A DNA stretch of 11,195 bases from Actinomycetes bacterium. GTDB taxonomy: Bacteria > Actinomycetota > Actinomycetes > Mycobacteriales > Micromonosporaceae. How positions within the stretch are numbered: the first letter of the stretch is position 1; each line of letters starts with the position of its first letter. A program made the translations under genes and the position numbers. The stretch is taken from NCBI GenBank assembly GCA_023437285.1, contig JAEZGP010000075.1:1-11195 (forward strand), read 5' to 3'. Of the stretch, positions 1 to 7,547 are shown piece by piece. The notes beneath the pieces were generated by a model. It was not told the origin of the DNA, ran no database searches, and worked only from the letters and a program-made list of their open reading frames with translations.

Positions 1-1485
1 GGACTCGGCCGCGACCTACGCGCCGCGATCTTCGGCCGGGTGCAGACGTTCTCCGCCCGCGAGGTTGGCCGCTTCGGCGCCCCGTCGCTGATCACCCGTA
101 CCACGAACGATGTCCAGCAGGTACAGATGCTGACGCTCATGACGCTGACGCTCATGGTGTCGGCGCCGATCATGTGCGTGGGCGGCGTCATCCTCGCGCT
201 CAGGCAGGACGTACCGCTGTCGGGCCTGCTGCTCGTCATCGTCCCGGCCCTGGTGGCGGTCATCGGCATCGCCGTGGTGAAGATGCGGCCGCTGTTTCGC
301 GCCATGCAGGTGCGCATCGACGCGGTGAACCGCATCCTGCGCGAGCAGATCACGGGCATCCGGGTGATCCGGGCGTTCGTCCGCGACGAGCACGAGCAGC
401 GGCGCTTCGCCACGTCCAACACGCAGCTGACCGACGTGGCGCTGGGGGCCGGACGGCTGATGGCGACCATGTTCCCCGCGGTCATGTTCATCATCAACGT
501 CTCCAGCGTGGCGGTGATCTGGTTCGGCGGGCACCGGGTGGCCAGCGGCGGCATGGAGATCGGCGCGCTCACGGCGTTCCTGAGTTACCTCATGCTGATC
601 CTGATGTCGGTCATGATGGCGACGTTCATGTTCGTCATGGTGCCGCGCGCCGAGGTCTGCGCCGAACGCATCGACGAGGTGCTGACCACCGACACCAGCG
701 TCGTGCCGCCGGTCACGCCGGTCACGCCGGCGACCAGCCGGGGCGAGCTGGCGCTGCGCGGCGTCTCGTTCCGTTACCCCGGCGCGGAGGAGCCGGTCGT
801 CAAGGACATCGACCTGGTGGCCCACCCGGGCGAGATAACGGCGATCATCGGGAGTACGGGCAGCGGCAAGACCACGGTCCTCAACCTCATCCCCCGGCTG
901 TACGACGCGACGGACGGCGAGGTCACGATCGACGGGGTCGACGTACGGGACCTGGACCCGGCCTACCTGACCACGGTCATCGGGCTGGTCCCCCAGAAGC
1001 CGTACCTGTTCACCGGTACGGTCGCGAGCAACCTGCGCTACGGGCGGCCCGACGCCACGGACGAACAGCTGTGGCACGCCCTGGAGGTGGCTCAGGCGCG
1101 CGACTTCGTCGAGAAGATGCCCGAACAGTTGGCCGCGCCGATCGCGCAGGGCGGCACGAACGTGTCGGGCGGACAGCGCCAGCGCCTGTCAATCGCTCGC
1201 GCGCTGGTGCGGCAGCCGAAGATCTACCTCTTCGACGACTCGTTCTCCGCCCTGGACTACGCGACCGACGCGGCGCTGCGGGCCGCGCTGGCAAAGGAGA
1301 CCACCGCGGCCACGGTCGTCATCGTGGCGCAGCGGGTCAGCACGATCCGCTCGGCCGACCGCATCGTCGTGCTCGACGAGGGTCGCGTGGTCGGCGTGGG
1401 TACGCACGCCGAACTGATGGCCGACAACGACACGTACCGCGAGATCGTCCTCTCCCAGCTCACCGAACAGGAGGCCGCGGTATGA
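1..1485 (+). CDS. ABC exporter half-transporter, degenerate-site subunit (5' partial)
   Basis: Fused membrane domain plus ATPase of an ABC exporter. The reading frame is open from base 1, so the N-terminus (roughly the first 90 residues by family length) lies outside the window; 494 residues are visible. The membrane domain opens with the family signature RFGAPSLITRTTNDVQQVQ, followed by hydrophobic helices to about base 650. The ATPase follows: Walker A GSTGSGKT (850-873), Q-loop VPQKPYLF, signature VSGGQ (1162-1176), Walker B IYLFDD (1222-1239) and D-loop SALD. Two key residues are not canonical. The catalytic Glu after Walker B is Asp (codon 1237-1239), and the switch His is Gln (AQRVSTI, codon 1330-1332). 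In heterodimeric exporters such as TM287/288 and BmrCD, this marks the subunit whose own ATP site hydrolyses poorly. The gene overlaps the next by ATGA, so the two are coupled and probably form the dimer. The substrate is unknown; drugs, lipids or peptides are typical for the class. Confidence 0.93.
   Translation, partial: GLGRDLRAAIFGRVQTFSAREVGRFGAPSLITRTTNDVQQVQMLTLMTLTLMVSAPIMCVGGVILALRQDVPLSGLLLVIVPALVAVIGIAVVKMRPLFRAMQVRIDAVNRILREQITGIRVIRAFVRDEHEQRRFATSNTQLTDVALGAGRLMATMFPAVMFIINVSSVAVIWFGGHRVASGGMEIGALTAFLSYLMLILMSVMMATFMFVMVPRAEVCAERIDEVLTTDTSVVPPVTPVTPATSRGELALRGVSFRYPGAEEPVVKDIDLVAHPGEITAIIGSTGSGKTTVLNLIPRLYDATDGEVTIDGVDVRDLDPAYLTTVIGLVPQKPYLFTGTVASNLRYGRPDATDEQLWHALEVAQARDFVEKMPEQLAAPIAQGGTNVSGGQRQRLSIARALVRQPKIYLFDDSFSALDYATDAALRAALAKETTAATVVIVAQRVSTIRSADRIVVLDEGRVVGVGTHAELMADNDTYREIVLSQLTEQEAAV
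1469..1474 (+). promoter_or_regulatory. Ribosome binding site AGGAGG of the second ABC gene
   Basis: A perfect AGGAGG lies inside the end of the first ABC gene, seven bases before the ATG at 1482. It fixes that start and supports coupled translation across the ATGA overlap. Confidence 0.8.
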
Positions 1486-3446
1486 GCGAGCGTAGCCAAC
1501 CGAGGCGCGGGCACGGCGGGCCCGGGTTCGCCGCCATGATGGGCGGCGGGGCGCCGCCCGCGAAGCCGCTGGACTTCAAGGGGACCACCAAGCGGCTGGT
1601 CGGCATGCTGCATCCCGAGCGGGCGACCGTCATCGTGGCGCTCGCGCTGGGCATCGTGAGCGTGTTCCTGTCCGTCCTCGGCCCGCGCATCCTGGGTCAC
1701 GCCACCGACCTGGTCTTCGCGGGCGTCATCGGCAGCCGGCTGCCGGCGGGCGTCACAAAGGAGCAGGCCATCGAGCAGTTGCGGGCGTCCGGGCAGGACC
1801 GGATGGCCGACCTGCTCAGCGGCATGACGGTCACCCCGGGGCAGGGCATCGACTTCGACGCCGTCGGCCGGGTCCTGATCTGGGTGCTGGTCATCTATGT
1901 GGGCGCGTCGCTGTTCGCGCTGCTGCAGGGCCGGCTGACCGCGCTGGTTGTACAGCGCACCGCGTACCGGCTGCGCGAGCAGGTGGAGGCGAAGCTCGCC
2001 CGGTTGCCGCTGAGCTACTTCGACAAGCAGGCGCGCGGCGAGGTGCTCAGCCGGGCCACCAACGACACCGACAACGTCGGCCAGACGTTGCAGCAGACGC
2101 TGAGCATGCTCATCACGTCCGTACTGACGATCATCGGCGTACTCGGGATGATGGTCTGGATCTCGCCGTTGCTGGCGGTCATCGCGCTCGTGGCGGTGCC
2201 GCTGTCGGTCGTGCTGACCGCGAAGATCGGCAAGCGCGCGCAGAAGCAGTTCATCGCGCAGTGGGCGACCACGGGCCGGCTCAACGCGCACATCGAGGAG
2301 AACTTCACCGGGCATTCCCTGGTGAAGGTGTTCGGCCGCCAAGCTGAGGCCGAGGAGACGTTTGCCCAGCACAACGGCGAGCTGTACGGGTCGAGCTTCA
2401 AGGCGCAGCTCATCTCGGGCACGATCCAGCCCGCGATGATGTTCATCGGCAACCTGACCTACGTGATCATCGCCGTGGTGGGTGCCGTACGGGTGCTCAA
2501 CGGCGGCATGACGCTGGGCGAGGTGCAGGCGTTCATCCAGTACTCCCGGCAGTTCACTCAGCCGCTGACCCAGGTGGCGAGCATGGCCAACCTGGTGCAG
2601 TCGGGCATCGCCTCGGCCGAGCGGGTCTTCGAGCTGCTCGACGCCCCGGAGCAGGAGGCCGACCCGGTCGAGCCGGCGCGGCCGGCGCAGCTGCGCGGGC
2701 GGGTCGCGTTCGAGCACGTGGGCTTCAGCTACGACCCGGAGCGGCCGCTCATCGAGGACCTGTCGCTGGTCGCCGAGCCGGGCCAAACCATCGCCATCGT
2801 CGGGCCGACCGGCGCCGGCAAGACGACGCTGGTCAACCTGCTCATGCGGTTCTACGAGGTGGACCGGGGCCGGATCACCCTCGACGGGGTGGACATCCGG
2901 ACCATGTCACGCGACGAGCTGCGGGACGCGATCGGCATGGTGCTGCAGGACACGTGGCTGTTCGGGGGCTCGATCGAGGACAACATCGCGTACGGGGCCG
3001 GCGACGGGCCGGTGCCGCACGAGCGGATCGTGGAGGCCGCCCAGGCCACGCACGTCGACCGGTTCGTGCGTACCCTGCCCGACGGGTACGGCACGGTCAT
3101 CGACGAGGAGGGCGGCAACGTCTCGATGGGCGAGAAACAGCTCATCACGATCGCCCGCGCGTTCCTCGCCGAGCCGACGATCCTCATCCTCGACGAGGCG
3201 ACCAGCTCGGTGGACACCCGCACCGAGGTGCTCATCCAGCGCGCCATGAGCACCCTGCGGACGGGCCGGACGAGCTTCGTCATCGCCCACCGACTCTCCA
3301 CGATCCGCAACGCCGACCTGATCCTGGTCATGGAGAACGGCGCGATCGTCGAGCAGGGCACCCACGACGAACTGATCGCGGCCGGCGGCGCATACGCCCG
3401 CCTGTACGCGGCCCAGTTCGCCGCGCCGCTGGCCGAGGTCGACTGA
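1482..3446 (+). CDS. ABC exporter half-transporter, canonical-site subunit
   Basis: Second half of the exporter, 654 residues. The start is the ATG at 1482, which overlaps the previous stop (ATGA) and has AGGAGG seven bases upstream; the open frame further upstream is a shadow of the first gene. A Gly/Met-rich cytoplasmic N-tail (MMGGG near 19-23) leads to membrane helices spanning about 45-340, with a long loop of about 55 residues after helix 1. ATPase motifs: Walker A GPTGAGKT (441-448), Q-loop Gln489, Walker B ILILDE with catalytic Glu572, and switch His603 (IAHRLSTI). All of these are canonical. The signature motif is VSMGE (547-551) instead of LSGGQ. This complements the first subunit: its Walker motifs pair with the first subunit's good VSGGQ in an active site, while its poor signature faces the first subunit's Asp/Gln site. 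The last 20 codons are duplicated at 4419-4481. Transport substrate unknown. Confidence 0.95.
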   Translation: MSERSQPRRGHGGPGFAAMMGGGAPPAKPLDFKGTTKRLVGMLHPERATVIVALALGIVSVFLSVLGPRILGHATDLVFAGVIGSRLPAGVTKEQAIEQLRASGQDRMADLLSGMTVTPGQGIDFDAVGRVLIWVLVIYVGASLFALLQGRLTALVVQRTAYRLREQVEAKLARLPLSYFDKQARGEVLSRATNDTDNVGQTLQQTLSMLITSVLTIIGVLGMMVWISPLLAVIALVAVPLSVVLTAKIGKRAQKQFIAQWATTGRLNAHIEENFTGHSLVKVFGRQAEAEETFAQHNGELYGSSFKAQLISGTIQPAMMFIGNLTYVIIAVVGAVRVLNGGMTLGEVQAFIQYSRQFTQPLTQVASMANLVQSGIASAERVFELLDAPEQEADPVEPARPAQLRGRVAFEHVGFSYDPERPLIEDLSLVAEPGQTIAIVGPTGAGKTTLVNLLMRFYEVDRGRITLDGVDIRTMSRDELRDAIGMVLQDTWLFGGSIEDNIAYGAGDGPVPHERIVEAAQATHVDRFVRTLPDGYGTVIDEEGGNVSMGEKQLITIARAFLAEPTILILDEATSSVDTRTEVLIQRAMSTLRTGRTSFVIAHRLSTIRNADLILVMENGAIVEQGTHDELIAAGGAYARLYAAQFAAPLAEVD

Positions 3447-3447
3447 G
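3384..3447 (+). repeat. Direct repeat copy A: in-frame 3' end of the second ABC gene
   Basis: These 64 bases encode the last 20 residues of the exporter (GGAYARLYAAQF onward), its TGA and one more base. They match 4419-4482 at 61 of 64 positions with no gaps. Two of the three differences are silent third-position changes (GCA/GCG, TAC/TAT) and one changes Ala648 to Glu. The offset is 1035 bases. Similarity stops abruptly on the left, one base before the repeat (3383/4418 still agree). To the right both copies continue into a GC hairpin of the same type. Confidence 0.92.
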
Positions 3448-3454
3448 TACGTGA

Positions 3455-3488
3455 GGGCGCGGCGGCAGGCCCCAACGCCGCCGCGCCC
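3455..3488 (+). terminator. GC hairpin after the exporter operon
   Basis: A perfect 12-bp stem (3455-3466 with 3477-3488, arm GGGCGCGGCGGC) closes a 10-base loop nine bases after the exporter stop. There is no U-tract, as is common for actinomycete hairpin terminators. It lies between convergent genes and could act in both directions. A hairpin of the same size and loop length lies after copy B of the repeat. Confidence 0.6.
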
Positions 3489-3502
3489 CGTCAATCCTTC
3501 GT

Positions 3503-3522
3503 GCCGCGCGCCTCGGCGCGGC
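3503..3522 (-). terminator. Short GC hairpin after the 253-aa gene
   Basis: A 7-bp stem (3503-3509 with 3516-3522, arm GCCGCGC) and 6-base loop begin about 12 bases beyond the TAG of the minus-strand gene. No U-tract follows, so this is a plausible but weaker terminator for that gene. Confidence 0.4.
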
Positions 3523-3533
3523 GGCGTCAGGCG

Positions 3534-4295
3534 CTAGGCCCGGCGGTACTCCGAATGAAGCCACGGGCCGTCCACAACGAACGACCGAGAGGTACATGTG
3601 AAGGTACCTACGCCGTCGGCGAAGATCGGCCCGTACACCTGATTTGTCATGACGCGGTTGCGGTAGTAGTAATGCCATCCCTCGGAGGCGGTGACTTTCT
3701 CGCTGAGCCTGTCGCCGGTGACGGTGTACCGTCCCATTCCCGTGCCCTGATAGCCATGCGCGAGGCGATCCCCGCTCGGCGCGTGTCCTTCGACAACAAA
3801 ATTTGCGGTTGTCGACCAGGTCCCATTAGCGCGGTAGACCACAGTTGAGGTTCCCTGCGTCAGCGTCATACGAACCGTGCCAACGCCGGAGACGGCCTCA
3901 TAGATCGTCATGCTCGCGAGTGACCACGTGCCCTCGACGCAAGGATGCGGCGAGCTGGATTCAAGGGCAGGCTCGGGCTCCTCGTCGTCCGTGGGTTGGG
4001 GCTCCTCCGTGGGTTCGGGCTCCTCGGTGGGCTCCTCCTCGGTCGGCCGCTCTACGCGCTCCGTCTCGCGAACACCGCTGTCCGATGTCCTTACCAATGA
4101 GGGCGTGGTGGGCGGCGCCATCACGTACGTCGCGCCACTCTTCGGCTCCGGACTTGGCTCGATGGCCGAACGGATGCCGAGGACGTCAGCGACGAACCCG
4201 ACCGCACCCAGGAGGACCGTGAGGACGAGCCCGAGCACACCGAGGAGCCCTTTGCGCCTACGCGACAGGGAATCCTCTTGTGCCTCGGCTCCCAT
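3534..4295 (-). CDS. Hypothetical membrane-anchored protein with PTEE linker and beta-rich C-terminal domain
   Basis: A 253-residue protein I cannot assign to a named family. The start is the ATG at 4295, with AGGAG five bases upstream; the longer open frame is a shadow running across the galactanase. Layout: a charged cytoplasmic N-tail with SRRRKG (11-16), one hydrophobic helix at about 17-38, and a linker at about 45-115 rich in Pro, Thr and Glu with repeated PTEEEP/PTEEPQP units. The C-terminal domain of about 135 residues (119-253) is rich in aromatic and beta-forming residues. It opens with CVEGTW, carries YTVTGDRL near 190-197, and has only two cysteines (119 and 234), placed at the two ends of its core and able to form a disulfide. 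The positive-inside rule puts that domain outside the membrane. The GTW opening and strand pattern recall lipocalin-like small beta-barrels, which is inference only. Base composition is lower in GC than the neighbours, and the gene is enclosed by the duplicated exporter tail, suggesting acquisition. A ligand-binding or envelope-sensing role is conceivable but unproven. Confidence 0.82.
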   Translation of the reverse strand: MGAEAQEDSLSRRRKGLLGVLGLVLTVLLGAVGFVADVLGIRSAIEPSPEPKSGATYVMAPPTTPSLVRTSDSGVRETERVERPTEEEPTEEPEPTEEPQPTDDEEPEPALESSSPHPCVEGTWSLASMTIYEAVSGVGTVRMTLTQGTSTVVYRANGTWSTTANFVVEGHAPSGDRLAHGYQGTGMGRYTVTGDRLSEKVTASEGWHYYYRNRVMTNQVYGPIFADGVGTFTCTSRSFVVDGPWLHSEYRRA

Positions 4296-4300
4296 GACTA

Positions 4301-4305
4301 CTCCT
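4301..4305 (-). promoter_or_regulatory. Ribosome binding site AGGAG of the 253-aa gene
   Basis: Read on the minus strand, AGGAG is followed by five bases and then ATG at 4295. It decides the start and rejects the long upstream extension of the same frame. No convincing promoter was identified in the about 120 bases upstream, although a TTGTCC hexamer occurs there. Confidence 0.7.
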
Positions 4306-4418
4306 ATGTTGGCTGCCCAGGCTGGTACACAGAACGGTAGCGATTTCCATACGGACAACATTCCGCCGGACGGGTACACGTGGGAGCCTGCCCGGTGCAT
4401 CCGACTCATCCACGGGTC

Positions 4419-4482
4419 GGCGGCGCGTATGCCCGCCTGTACGCGGCCCAGTTCGCCGAGCCGCTGGCCGAGGTCGACTGAG
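4419..4482 (+). repeat. Direct repeat copy B: orphaned 3' end of an ABC exporter gene
   Basis: The sequence still reads in frame as the exporter tail (GGAYARLYAAQFAEPLAEVD, then TGA at 4479-4481) but has no gene body in front: upstream bases do not resemble the exporter. It matches 3384-3447 at 61 of 64 bases. Because two of the three differences are silent, the two copies probably diverged while both were coding, for example in different strains or gene copies. It is a gene remnant, not an expressed gene. Confidence 0.9.
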
Positions 4483-4487
4483 ACGAA

Positions 4488-4521
4488 CCGGGGGCGCGGT
4501 GCCGAACCGCCGCGCCCCCGG
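4488..4521 (-). terminator. GC hairpin after the galactanase gene
   Basis: A perfect 12-bp stem (4488-4499 with 4510-4521, arm CCGGGGGCGCGG) with a 10-base loop lies just beyond the galactanase stop. It also sits seven bases after the stop of the orphaned exporter tail. Before the insertion it would have separated the convergent exporter and galactanase genes. It shares the core GGGCGCGG and CCGCCGCGCCCC with the hairpin at 3455-3488. No U-tract. Confidence 0.6.
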
Positions 4522-4525
4522 TCGG

Positions 4526-6118
4526 TCAGTACTCGCCGAAGACCTTCAGGGCGGGCAGCGCCCTGCCGTCGTAGTCGAAGAGGGCCTGGTTCTCCCAGGC
4601 GTTGCCCGAGGTCGGGTCGGCCGGGTCCCAGCCGCCGCCCGCGACGGCGGTCCAGGTGGGCTCCCAGTAGAAGACGCCCAGGCCCCGCCCGTCGGGCACG
4701 GCGGCGACGACGTTGAACATGTCGCGCAGCGCCTGCGCCTGGCCCGCCGGCGTGGCCGGATAGCCGGCCGTGGCCTGCAACGTCGGGTTGAAGATGTTCG
4801 CCAGGGCGTCGTCCTCTTCGAGGGTGAACCCGTAGGCGGTCTCGACCACCATGACGTCCTTGTCGTAGCGCTTCACCAGGTCGAACAGGTTGGCCTGCAG
4901 GTAGCCCAGCGGCCCGTGCCAGTACGTGTAGTGCGACACGGCGATCACGTCGAACGGCACGCCCCGGCTCACGGCGTTGTCGAACCACCAGACATGCCCG
5001 CCGTTGTTGCCGCCCTCGGCCAGATGCAACACCACCTTGGTACGCGGCGACGCGGCGCTCACCGCCGTGCTGGCGGCGGTGAGCAGGGCGGCCAGGCCGT
5101 CCCAGTTGTCCCACCGGCCGTCGGGCCACAGCAGACCGCCGTTGATCTCGTTGCCGATCTGCGCCAGGTCGGCCGGCGTGTGCTGGCGGCGCAGCGCCGA
5201 CAGCACGTCGTACGTGTGGTTGTAGACCGCCTGCTTGAGCTCCTCGAACGGCAGCGCCGCCCAGGCGGCGGGCTTGTTCTGCTTGCCGGGGTCGGCCCAC
5301 GCGTCGGAGTAGTGGAAGTCGACGAGCAGCTTCATGCCCTGCTTCTTGACCCGCTTGGCCAGGGCCAGCACCTGTGCCTTGTTGCTGTAGCCGTCGGCCG
5401 GGTCCACCCAGACCTTGACGCGGGCGTAGTTGACGTCGTTGTCGGCGAGGATGCGCAGCGCGTCGCCGCGCCTGCCGTTCGCGTCGCGGTACACGGCCCC
5501 GTGGTCCTCATTCTTGGGCAGCTGCGACACGTCGGCGCCGGAGATGTCGACCTTGCCGGCGGCGCCGGGGGTCAGGCTGACCGCGTCGACGTTGAGCCAG
5601 CTGCCGGCCACGCCGTCGGAGTGCACGCCGATCGTGCACGCACCGCCCTTCACGCTGGTGCTGAGCACGATCTGCACCCACCACTGCGGCCCGGTGTGGG
5701 GCAGGGCGATGGTGCGCTGCGGGCCGCCGCAGTCGCGCAGGAACAGGTACGCGGCGCTCTGGTCGCCGCTGGTACGCACGGACGCGCGCAGCGTGTATGA
5801 GGCCTTCGACAACCCGGTCACCCGCTGGAAGGTCTCCACCTGGTAGGCCGACGCCGACCAGTGGGTCAGCCGGTAGGCGCCGCTGGCGCCACCCGCTTCG
5901 GTGTAGCTGGCGTCGGCCAGCCCGGCCTCCGACCACCCGGCGGGCGTGGCGACGCCGGTCGCGTCGTCCTCGAAGTCAGGATTGACGACCATGGCCGGTG
6001 CGGGCGACGGCCTGGTCGGGCCGGCGGACGCCACGCCGGGGACGGTCGCCACGGCGACCACGAGCACACCGACGCCGAGCAGCCGCACCGGCCGGCGTCG
6101 AAACGGTTGGCTGAGCAT
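4526..6118 (-). CDS. Secreted endo-beta-1,4-galactanase (arabinogalactan endo-galactosidase), GH53
   Basis: A 530-residue secreted enzyme that cleaves internal beta-1,4 bonds of galactan and type I arabinogalactan side chains of pectin. A signal peptide is clear: arginines at 7-9, a hydrophobic core at 12-27, and likely cleavage after ASA (32). Residues about 43-185 form a separate beta-rich domain beginning NPDFEDD, resembling a galactan-binding module such as CBM61; this assignment is inferred. The GH53 catalytic domain covers about 190-530, with landmarks GADVSQL (194-200), RVKVWVDP (233-240), LLVDFHYSDAWADPGKQNKP (264-283), IGNEINGG with acid/base Glu324, and VVETAYG with nucleophile Glu426. 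The pairing of these glutamates with strands 4 and 7 is the GH-A clan pattern. The start is the ATG at 6118 with a modest GAGAGG four bases upstream. The gene stands alone: no galactosidase or importer is in the window. A LacI-type operator lies over its likely promoter. Confidence 0.95.
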   Translation of the reverse strand: MLSQPFRRRPVRLLGVGVLVVAVATVPGVASAGPTRPSPAPAMVVNPDFEDDATGVATPAGWSEAGLADASYTEAGGASGAYRLTHWSASAYQVETFQRVTGLSKASYTLRASVRTSGDQSAAYLFLRDCGGPQRTIALPHTGPQWWVQIVLSTSVKGGACTIGVHSDGVAGSWLNVDAVSLTPGAAGKVDISGADVSQLPKNEDHGAVYRDANGRRGDALRILADNDVNYARVKVWVDPADGYSNKAQVLALAKRVKKQGMKLLVDFHYSDAWADPGKQNKPAAWAALPFEELKQAVYNHTYDVLSALRRQHTPADLAQIGNEINGGLLWPDGRWDNWDGLAALLTAASTAVSAASPRTKVVLHLAEGGNNGGHVWWFDNAVSRGVPFDVIAVSHYTYWHGPLGYLQANLFDLVKRYDKDVMVVETAYGFTLEEDDALANIFNPTLQATAGYPATPAGQAQALRDMFNVVAAVPDGRGLGVFYWEPTWTAVAGGGWDPADPTSGNAWENQALFDYDGRALPALKVFGEY

Positions 6119-6314: not shown

Positions 6315-6962
6315 TCAGCCGTGGCCCGGCTGGGCATCCGCGTGTACGTGTATGCCGGCTGCCAGGTCAGCGATGTCGTCGACGCTCATGCCGAGCCCGC
6401 GCCAGACCTGGACAAGCACCCACGCGTCGGCGGAGTGCTTGATCCACAGCGTCCGGGCCAGGCCGTCCGGGCTGTCGACCAGCACGCCGCTGCGGTCGCC
6501 GACGCGTACTGTCGTCCCCTCGGGAACGAACCCCTCGTCGGACTGGAGCATCACCACAATCTTGCCGGCGAAGCTGTCCGGCTCCTGATCGCTCGCGCCG
6601 ATGGGCGCCAGCGTCAACCTGTACGCGTTGACGCCCTGAATCTCCCAGCCGTCCGGGATCGTGTCGAGGGTGTACCCCTCCGGCTGCTCACCCTGGAAGG
6701 CGACGAGGCGCAAGGGCGTGGTGGCGGCCGGGGCGGACGATCCGGCCGCGGTGGACGGCACCGAGGGGTTCGAGCCGACCGCGCCGTAGGTGAGCGCCGC
6801 CGCCAGGACCGCGGCGGCGACGGCGGAACCTCCGGTCGCCTGGAGGGCGCGGCGACGGCGCAGGGCGCGCCGGCCACGGGCCACGTCCGCGTCCACCTGC
6901 TCGGGCGACGGCTGAGTCAGCGGGCCCGCGAGTTCATTGAGCTGGTCGTGCAGGGTTGTCAT
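6315..6962 (-). CDS. Single-pass membrane protein, probable partner/anti-sigma of the adjacent SigE-family factor
   Basis: A 215-residue protein. The cytoplasmic N-terminal part (1-40) ends in a strongly basic stretch (RGRRALRRRRAL, 29-40). One hydrophobic helix follows at about 42-62, then an Ala/Ser/Thr/Pro spacer (about 63-83) and an extracytoplasmic domain (about 84-215) with no recognised motif. It has no cysteine, so it cannot be a zinc-binding anti-sigma factor of the HxxxCxxC type. Its position directly after an ECF sigma gene (15 bases apart) and the topology of a cytoplasmic segment, one helix and an outer domain are those of membrane anti-sigma or sensor partners of actinobacterial SigE-family factors. 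The role is inferred from context. The start is the ATG at 6962 with GGGAG six bases upstream. The upstream sigma gene probably drives transcription of both. Confidence 0.8.
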   Translation of the reverse strand: MTTLHDQLNELAGPLTQPSPEQVDADVARGRRALRRRRALQATGGSAVAAAVLAAALTYGAVGSNPSVPSTAAGSSAPAATTPLRLVAFQGEQPEGYTLDTIPDGWEIQGVNAYRLTLAPIGASDQEPDSFAGKIVVMLQSDEGFVPEGTTVRVGDRSGVLVDSPDGLARTLWIKHSADAWVLVQVWRGLGMSVDDIADLAAGIHVHADAQPGHG

Positions 6963-6977
6963 GGGGTACTCCCGAAT

Positions 6978-7484
6978 CTAGGAAAGGGCCGGCGAGACGG
7001 GGCCGAGGACCGCGCGGACCCGGTCGAGGGCCCGGGCGGTCTGGCTCTTCACCGTGCCCTCGGAGCAGCCGAGGGCATCGGCGGTGGCGGCGACATCGAG
7101 GTCGTAGACGTAGCGGAACACCAACGCGGCCCGCATCCGGGGCGGCAGGTCCCGCAGGGCCGCGCGCAGCCCGTCGGCCAGTTCGGCGCCGTCCGCCTCG
7201 GTGCCCGGCCGGTCCGGCAACTCGGCCATCGGCCGTTCCCGCCGACGCCATCCCCGTCGGTGTTCGTCCGCCAGAACGTTCACCAGTACGCGACGCACGT
7301 AGCCGTCGGGGTTGTCCGCCCGCCGGTACGCCGGCCACGCCACGTACAGCTTGGTCAGGGTGGACTGCACCAGGTCCTCGGCGAGGTGCCGGTCGCCGGC
7401 GGTGAGCAAGGTGGCGGTCCGGACCAACGCGGCGCGGTGGGTGACCACAAAGCTGTGGAACTGCGCATCACGCTCGCTTGTCAC
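6978..7484 (-). CDS. ECF RNA polymerase sigma factor, SigE family
   Basis: A 168-residue sigma-70-type factor with only regions 2 and 4, as in extracytoplasmic-function sigmas. Region 2 spans about 7-80, with AEDLVQSTLTKLYVAW (35-50) for core binding and NPDGYVRRVLVNV (58-70) toward -10 recognition. Region 4 spans about 106-158, with the LPPRMRAALVFRY helix (113-125) and the helix-turn-helix DVAATADALGCSEGTVKSQ (130-148). I chose the GTG at 7484 because AAGGAG lies five bases before it. Upstream in-frame ATGs at 7520 and 7541 would add 12 or 19 residues unlike a sigma N-terminus and run through a hairpin. It is the first gene of a pair with the membrane protein at 6315-6962, which probably controls it. 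The promoters it recognises are unknown; a likely self-promoter lies upstream. Confidence 0.93.
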   Translation of the reverse strand: MTSERDAQFHSFVVTHRAALVRTATLLTAGDRHLAEDLVQSTLTKLYVAWPAYRRADNPDGYVRRVLVNVLADEHRRGWRRRERPMAELPDRPGTEADGAELADGLRAALRDLPPRMRAALVFRYVYDLDVAATADALGCSEGTVKSQTARALDRVRAVLGPVSPALS

Positions 7485-7489
7485 ATCTT

Positions 7490-7495
7490 CTCCTT
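7490..7495 (-). promoter_or_regulatory. Ribosome binding site AAGGAG deciding the sigma gene start
   Basis: Minus-strand AAGGAG, then five bases, then GTG at 7484. Neither alternative ATG (7520, 7541) has comparable spacing. Confidence 0.75.
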
Positions 7496-7506
7496 CGCTG
7501 TCACGC

Positions 7507-7535
7507 CCCCCTGACGCCATCAGCGCGTCCGGGGG
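7507..7535 (-). terminator. Hairpin between hrpA and the sigma gene
   Basis: Five G:C pairs (7507-7511 with 7531-7535), one mismatch, five more pairs (7513-7517 with 7525-7529) and a seven-base loop. It starts 12 bases past the hrpA stop on the minus strand, where a terminator would be expected. It overlaps the candidate sigma promoter. Confidence 0.45.
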
Positions 7536-7539
7536 TTGC
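7513..7539 (-). promoter_or_regulatory. Candidate ECF-type promoter of the sigma operon
   Basis: On the minus strand GCAACC (7539-7534), a 17-base spacer and CGTC (7516-7513) match the general ECF pattern of an AAC-containing -35 and a CGTC -10. A start near 7506 would give a leader of about 20 bases that includes the AAGGAG site. Autoregulation by the encoded sigma factor is common in such units and is inferred here. Confidence 0.4.
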
Positions 7540-7547
7540 ATGACCCG

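What the first reader, a model, noticed from the sequence alone, without database searches (positions are those of the whole stretch)
3384..4482. Duplicated exporter 3' end flanks a one-gene cassette
The last 20 codons plus stop of the second ABC gene occur twice, 1,035 bases apart, at 61/64 identity. Copy A completes the functional gene; copy B is an orphan beside the galactanase. Between them lies a lower-GC gene of unknown function on the other strand. Two of the three differences are silent, suggesting the copies diverged while both were coding. Insertion that regenerates the 3' end of its target is well known for tRNA genes and some protein genes. Here it appears without any integrase, so a small passenger cassette, homology-assisted capture of a neighbour's exporter tail, or loss of a larger island are all possible.
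Basis: partly seen in the sequence, partly recalled or inferred. Interest (0 to 1): 0.72.

Follow-up and report, generated by a model that had tools for sequence, protein, structure and literature searches.

The report
Displaced exporter tail beside captured gene
A Luedemannella-like actinomycete carries the last 64 bases of a transport gene twice, at 61 of 64 identical bases, with one foreign-looking gene in between, likely because incoming DNA joined at the transport gene's end and pushed the original end aside; this would be an ordinary way for bacteria to gain genes, caught here at an unusual spot.

Summary
The repeat is real: 3384-3447 and 4419-4482 match at 61 of 64 bases, 1,035 apart, each followed by its own hairpin. 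None of 40 Micromonosporaceae relatives read (of 344 with an exporter match) has a second tail copy in the stretch read. The closest exporters are from Luedemannella. A database exporter, P0001, equals the window's at 653 of 654 residues. The one difference, residue 648, lies in the tail: the window gene (copy A) has Ala; P0001, L. helvata, L. flava and two more have Glu, which orphan copy B encodes. So B keeps the lineage's own end and A is altered or imported. The insert gene had no homologue in a single-sequence search of 5.8 billion proteins, has foreign codon usage, a Shine-Dalgarno, and a divergent domain shared with C-termini of Hsp70-like proteins. Best reading: capture of a neighbour's exporter tail plus next gene, displacing the old tail. 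The route is not shown. New member of a known kind.

The parts
1482..3446 (+). ABC exporter, 654 aa, ABC_membrane plus ABC_tran; MsbA-like by the best-scoring NCBIfam models, those shown all below cut-off; 96% to L. helvata P0002, 653/654 identical to P0001
3384..3447 (+). tail copy A: last 20 codons, stop and one base; completes the exporter; residue 648 Ala
3455..3488 (+). hairpin A between exporter and the insert gene; possible terminator, but no T run
   Evidence: one search found no terminator-like site with a T-rich tail
3534..4295 (-). insert gene, 253 aa: short N-terminus, one hydrophobic segment, Pro/Glu-rich linker, C-terminal domain of about 140 aa shared with C-termini of Hsp70-like proteins of Micromonosporaceae; foreign codon usage
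4301..4305 (-). AGGAG Shine-Dalgarno, 5 bases before the ATG of the insert gene
   Evidence: read directly
4296..4418 (.). upstream region of the insert gene, GC 0.60; its right end is the junction with copy B
4419..4482 (+). tail copy B: orphan copy of the exporter's last 20 codons, stop and one base; encodes Glu as in P0001-P0005
4487..4522 (+). hairpin B, between copy B and the galactanase stop

Best explanation
The insert is likely a short piece of DNA from a close relative (an exporter tail, its hairpin and one predicted surface-protein gene) that would have recombined at the exporter's 3' end, supplying tail copy A and pushing the recipient's own tail, copy B, aside next to the galactanase. 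Shown: the two copies, their separate hairpins, the Glu state of copy B shared with exporters P0001-P0005, and the foreign codon usage of the insert gene. Inferred: that one homologous exchange in or just before the tail fixed the left side, and that the right side was closed either by end-joining within the recipient's tail (homology-facilitated illegitimate recombination) or because the fragment had circularised and entered by one crossover within the 33 identical bases 3396-3428. Either route would keep the exporter intact and leave a non-coding orphan tail. The insert gene would be expressed on its own from the minus strand and is predicted to put a small domain outside the membrane.
For: Copy B's tail equals the P0001 and L. 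helvata tails at 20 of 20 residues, copy A at 19. Residue 648 is the only difference in 654 between the window exporter and P0001; a random single change would fall in the 20-residue tail with chance 20/654, about 3%. Against 38 parsed relatives of the 40 read, copy A has the rarer codon at two of the three sites (GCA in 1 against GCG in 22; GCG in 2 against GAG in 4, CAG being commonest with 22), copy B at one (TAT in 1 against TAC in 37); a decaying local duplicate should rather show the reverse. Both copies have the form YAAQFA.PLAEVD, with Glu at the dot in P0001-P0005 (P0005 ending in E) and not seen in the nine other tails printed, so the source of A lies near that clade. Homology stops one base after the stop and each copy has its own hairpin, as for two orthologous gene ends. 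Exporter and galactanase share contig length 32,378 in L. flava. The insert gene had no homologue at E 1e-3 by single-sequence search of the protein database; GC3 0.76 against 0.94-0.96; CAI-like 0.385 against 0.75-0.80 (those four genes form the reference set; the sigma gene and its neighbour, outside it, score 0.56 and 0.60). Second tail copy in 0 of 40 relatives.
Against: No DNA of an empty site was seen. P0001 could come from a cell that has the insert but kept Glu. Three differences are few. Hairpins A and B are not clearly more alike than those of unrelated pairs: alignment score 40, reached by 79 of 780 relative-relative pairs, and A or B against relatives gives up to 38 and 39, so orthology of the hairpins is not shown. 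No donor locus (exporter followed by this gene) was found. The right junction shows no diagnostic mark. Published homology-facilitated illegitimate recombination is rare (PMC3240628, abstract and passages; PMC5361080, passages).
Confidence: 0.5

Rival explanations
1. Remnant of a genomic island or a CIME-like element: an integrase-bearing element used the exporter's 3' end as attachment site, its attP carried a replacement tail (copy A), copy B is the displaced host end, and integrase and most cargo were later lost or acted in trans.
For: Direct repeats flank the insert and one of them restores the 3' end of a protein gene, as described for IMEs, whose att repeats are generally 8-60 bp and which decay to CIMEs (PMC5704250, passages; the repeat here is 64). 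The 33-base identical run 3396-3428 would suit a core. The pattern of differences (host 5', element 3' in copy A) fits one crossover there.
Against: No recombinase among the six window proteins scanned. No second tail copy in 40 relatives read nor in the listed part of a 354-genome tail search, where only two candidates per genome were scored (four of the second hits were read and lie in unrelated genes). No match to a tyrosine-recombinase motif in up to 7 kb downstream of the 40 relatives' exporters (a crude regular expression that does not cover serine recombinases). The insert gene had no match in viral contigs or phage records, its C-terminal domain none in plasmids.
Confidence: 0.25
2. 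Local event: the tail was duplicated within this genome (slippage or unequal exchange) around a gene that came in separately; copy A later changed Glu to Ala.
For: Both copies share clade-specific residues. P0001 with Glu is also what an unmutated copy A would give.
Against: Homology does not extend into the hairpins. Copy A, the working copy, carries the rarer codon at two of three sites. The only amino-acid change against P0001 falls in the 20-residue tail. It needs two events.
Confidence: 0.13
3. Assembly chimera: the 11,195-base record joins two strains of a metagenome.
For: The window galactanase is listed with contig length 11,195, so the window appears to be a whole contig, perhaps metagenomic. 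P0001 is a variant with the copy B tail residue on contigs of at most 4,483 bases.
Against: A join at the shared 33-mer would still need a real molecule with a tail copy next to the insert gene's upstream region. The insert gene reads as one intact gene with Shine-Dalgarno and a homologous domain.
Confidence: 0.1

Closest known systems
Homology-facilitated illegitimate recombination (three naturally competent species and E. coli conjugation; PMC3240628, abstract and passages)
   Same: Foreign DNA enters through homology at one end; the E. [quoted passage not shown]
   Different: Here inferred from sequence only; the second junction bears no diagnostic mark.
Displacement of T6SS effector 3' ends (PMC5361080, passages) and Rhs C-terminal displacement (PMC2935791, seen in search listing only)
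   Same: A new 3' part plus its following gene arrives; the old 3' end is shifted downstream as an orphan.
   Different: The gene is an exporter, the new tail is nearly identical to the old one, no toxin or immunity gene was recognised, and the displaced part is only 64 bases.
IME/CIME insertion at 3' ends of housekeeping genes (PMC5704250, passages)
   Same: Direct repeats, target 3' end restored, no integrase as in a CIME.
   Different: One-gene size, no related element found at this site, repeat not identical and slightly longer than the usual 8-60 bp.

Membership tests
CIME (decayed integrative element) | flanked by direct repeats (attL/attR), one restoring the target gene end | tested here: met
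   61/64 repeat; copy A completes the exporter; that these are att sites is not shown
CIME (decayed integrative element) | lacks integration and transfer genes | tested here: met
   one gene recognised between the repeats; no Pfam match in it, no recombinase in the six proteins scanned
CIME (decayed integrative element) | site used by a related integrase-bearing element | tested here: inconclusive
   none seen in 40 relatives; no Luedemannella DNA found
CIME (decayed integrative element) | excision or transfer in cis/trans | not testable with these tools
   needs PCR or reads
Homology-facilitated illegitimate recombination product | homology between incoming and resident DNA at one side | tested here: met
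   tail homology, clade-type residues in both copies
Homology-facilitated illegitimate recombination product | non-homologous joint at the other side | tested here: inconclusive
   copy B homology begins near 4415-4419 with no diagnostic mark
Homology-facilitated illegitimate recombination product | uninserted allele in the same species | tested here: inconclusive
   P0001 carries the copy B residue at position 648, but no DNA was available
Rhs/T6SS 3'-end displacement | toxin-type variable 3' domain with immunity gene | tested here: not met
   insert gene: no Pfam or NCBIfam family at E 0.001 and only weak Pfam hits up to E 10; exporter: ABC families only in Pfam and among the 25 NCBIfam models shown of 184; insert gene against PADLOC: one weak hit, E 0.0065, over residues 12-116, mostly the linker

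The most novel reading that the evidence does not exclude
The exporter's 3' end is an attachment site for a minimal one-gene cassette that moves without an integrase of its own: the 64-base repeats recombine, so one population holds cassette-in cells (this window) and cassette-out cells whose exporter ends with the copy B tail (P0001).
Probability: 0.13. Interest if true: 0.55.

Novelty: new member of a known kind. Interest (0 to 1): 0.33.

Why it matters
It is a small, readable example of how a bacterium can gain a gene at the end of a coding gene without damaging it, with the displaced old end still present as a fossil and relatives that polarise the event. If the repeats prove to recombine in the living population, ABC exporter tails would join the protein-gene ends used as insertion sites. 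The cargo carries a domain that no Pfam model covered above its cut-off, in the insert gene or in the four relatives scanned.

Tried and rejected
A search for the insert gene in 354 Micromonosporaceae genomes gave 23 genomes with weak hits. Several are only linker matches (for example L162 and L164, whose C-termini do not fit the domain alignment). The domain itself was then supported with an HMM of 11 relatives built without the insert gene: 47.3 bits against at most 9.0 for 2,000 shuffles. Those 11 were first found with the insert gene as query, so the test is not fully independent.

Single-sequence structure prediction of the C-terminal domain was uninformative (mean pLDDT 34.9); no fold search was made. 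Pfam Lipocalin_4 at E 0.57 is below its cut-off and not claimed. PHROGs gave one match at E 0.55.

Hairpin orthology test: inconclusive. A plasmid search with 3300-4700 matched 71 records, none over 80% of the query; the best, a Nonomuraea record, has no annotated gene in that stretch. Exporter-like loci in viral contigs (L182-L184) were not analysed further. Rfam and tRNA scans of the window were empty, so a tRNA-type site is rejected.

The 40 relatives were 34 of the 35 best exporter matches (G043, whose exporter lies near a contig end, was left out) plus six genomes; one search had matches in 344 of 354 genomes. Downstream DNA read was 6.9-7.2 kb, except 1.6 kb for L148. Two of the 40 tails could not be parsed for the codon count, and 9 of 120 listed proteins for the residue count.

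Full report
Observation. The last 20 codons, the stop and one further base of the second ABC gene occur at 3384-3447 and again at 4419-4482, 61 of 64 bases alike and 1,035 apart. The homology ends one base after the stop. The following sequences differ, yet both fold into hairpins, 3455-3488 and 4487-4522. The match is far above background: in 40 relatives a 68-base exporter tail finds at best 33-40 of 68 forward and at most 42 on the reverse strand in the downstream DNA, against 63 in the window.

Who it is. No genome is held for the window. By protein the exporter is 96% identical to Luedemannella helvata (P0002), 91% to L. flava (P0003), and 653 of 654 residues identical to P0001, an ENA-sourced sequence on two contigs of at most 4,483 bases. 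Luedemannella belongs to Micromonosporaceae. In DNA the best of 354 genomes of the family of Rhizocola hellebori is 79% over the membrane part, so no close relative's DNA could be read. The window galactanase is listed with contig length 11,195, so the window appears to be a whole contig.

Which copy is original. The single difference from P0001 is residue 648, inside the tail: Ala in the window gene, Glu in P0001 and in P0002-P0005. Orphan copy B encodes Glu. Copy B's 20 residues equal those of P0001 and L. helvata; copy A differs by one. Of the 120 listed homologues, the 111 that could be parsed give Gln-Ala 69, Ala-Ala 17, Glu-Ala 13, Glu-Pro 7, Gln-Pro 5 and no Ala-Pro at this place. In 38 parsed tails of the 40 relatives, copy A has the rarer codon at two of the three sites and copy B at one. 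This polarises the event: B looks like the lineage's own end, A like the newcomer or the altered one. It does not prove an empty site, because P0001 could carry the insert with an unchanged copy A.

Neighbourhood. In L. flava the exporter (P0003) and an 85% galactanase (P0122) both have contig length 32,378, so they very probably lie on one contig; adjacency is not shown. The insert gene had no homologue at E 1e-3 in 5.8 billion proteins, so none was detected among the L. flava or L. helvata proteins held there. That search is limited: it needs shared 5-residue words, it missed the distant relatives that a genome search later gave, and it also returned no copy of the window's own protein, which suggests that the gene was not called in the source annotation. 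In the 40 relatives, none from Luedemannella by DNA identity, the downstream neighbour varies; 21 share one family of long convergent genes, and none has the galactanase or the insert gene in the stretch read.

The insert gene. 3534-4295 minus, 253 aa, with AGGAG five bases before the ATG, one hydrophobic segment and a Pro/Glu linker, then a domain beginning C-x-x-G-x-W. An HMM of 11 relatives built without it scores 47.3 bits against at most 9.0 for 2,000 shuffles. In three of four scanned relatives the domain follows an Hsp70-like part; the fourth, like others in the alignment, is a small protein with a hydrophobic segment and linker. Its GC3 is 0.76 against 0.94-0.96 for the two ABC genes, the galactanase and the helicase, and 0.88-0.89 for the sigma gene and its neighbour. 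A surface location is a prediction.

Mechanism. The best reading is capture by recombination at the exporter end: donor DNA with tail A, hairpin A and the insert gene joined the resident exporter, and the resident's tail B with hairpin B was left beside the galactanase. The published parallels are homology-facilitated illegitimate recombination and single crossover of circularised DNA (abstract and passages of PMC3240628), the former proposed also for displaced T6SS effector ends (passages of PMC5361080). A decayed integrative element (CIME; passages of PMC5704250) gives the same anatomy and remains the main rival. The 40-relative reading and the 354-genome tail search, which scored only two candidates per genome and listed only part of its hits, showed no other insertion at this site. 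Local duplication and assembly chimera are less likely but not excluded.

Verdict. A real and partly polarised but ordinary kind of event: new member of a known kind, with an unresolved route.

Noticed in passing
3537-3956 (-); L163, L168-L170, L172, L175, L177: A domain of about 140 aa (C-x-x-G-x-W ... C) at the C-terminus of Hsp70-like proteins and on small proteins with a hydrophobic segment in Micromonosporaceae; no Pfam model covered it above its cut-off in four members scanned.
   Followed up: partly
3534-4295: The insert gene is absent from the protein database although the window's galactanase is in it with contig length 11,195: the source annotation seems to have missed this gene.
   Followed up: no
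L123-L145 and others, downstream of the exporter: 21 of 40 relatives share a family of long convergent genes (several frames of about 980 aa) within 3 kb downstream of the exporter; not identified.
   Followed up: no
6315-7541: ECF-type sigma factor gene and a following gene without Pfam match, with codon usage less biased than their neighbours (CAI-like 0.56 and 0.60; sigma match).
   Followed up: no
L182, L183: Viral-collection contigs carry an exporter 65% identical to this one.
   Followed up: no
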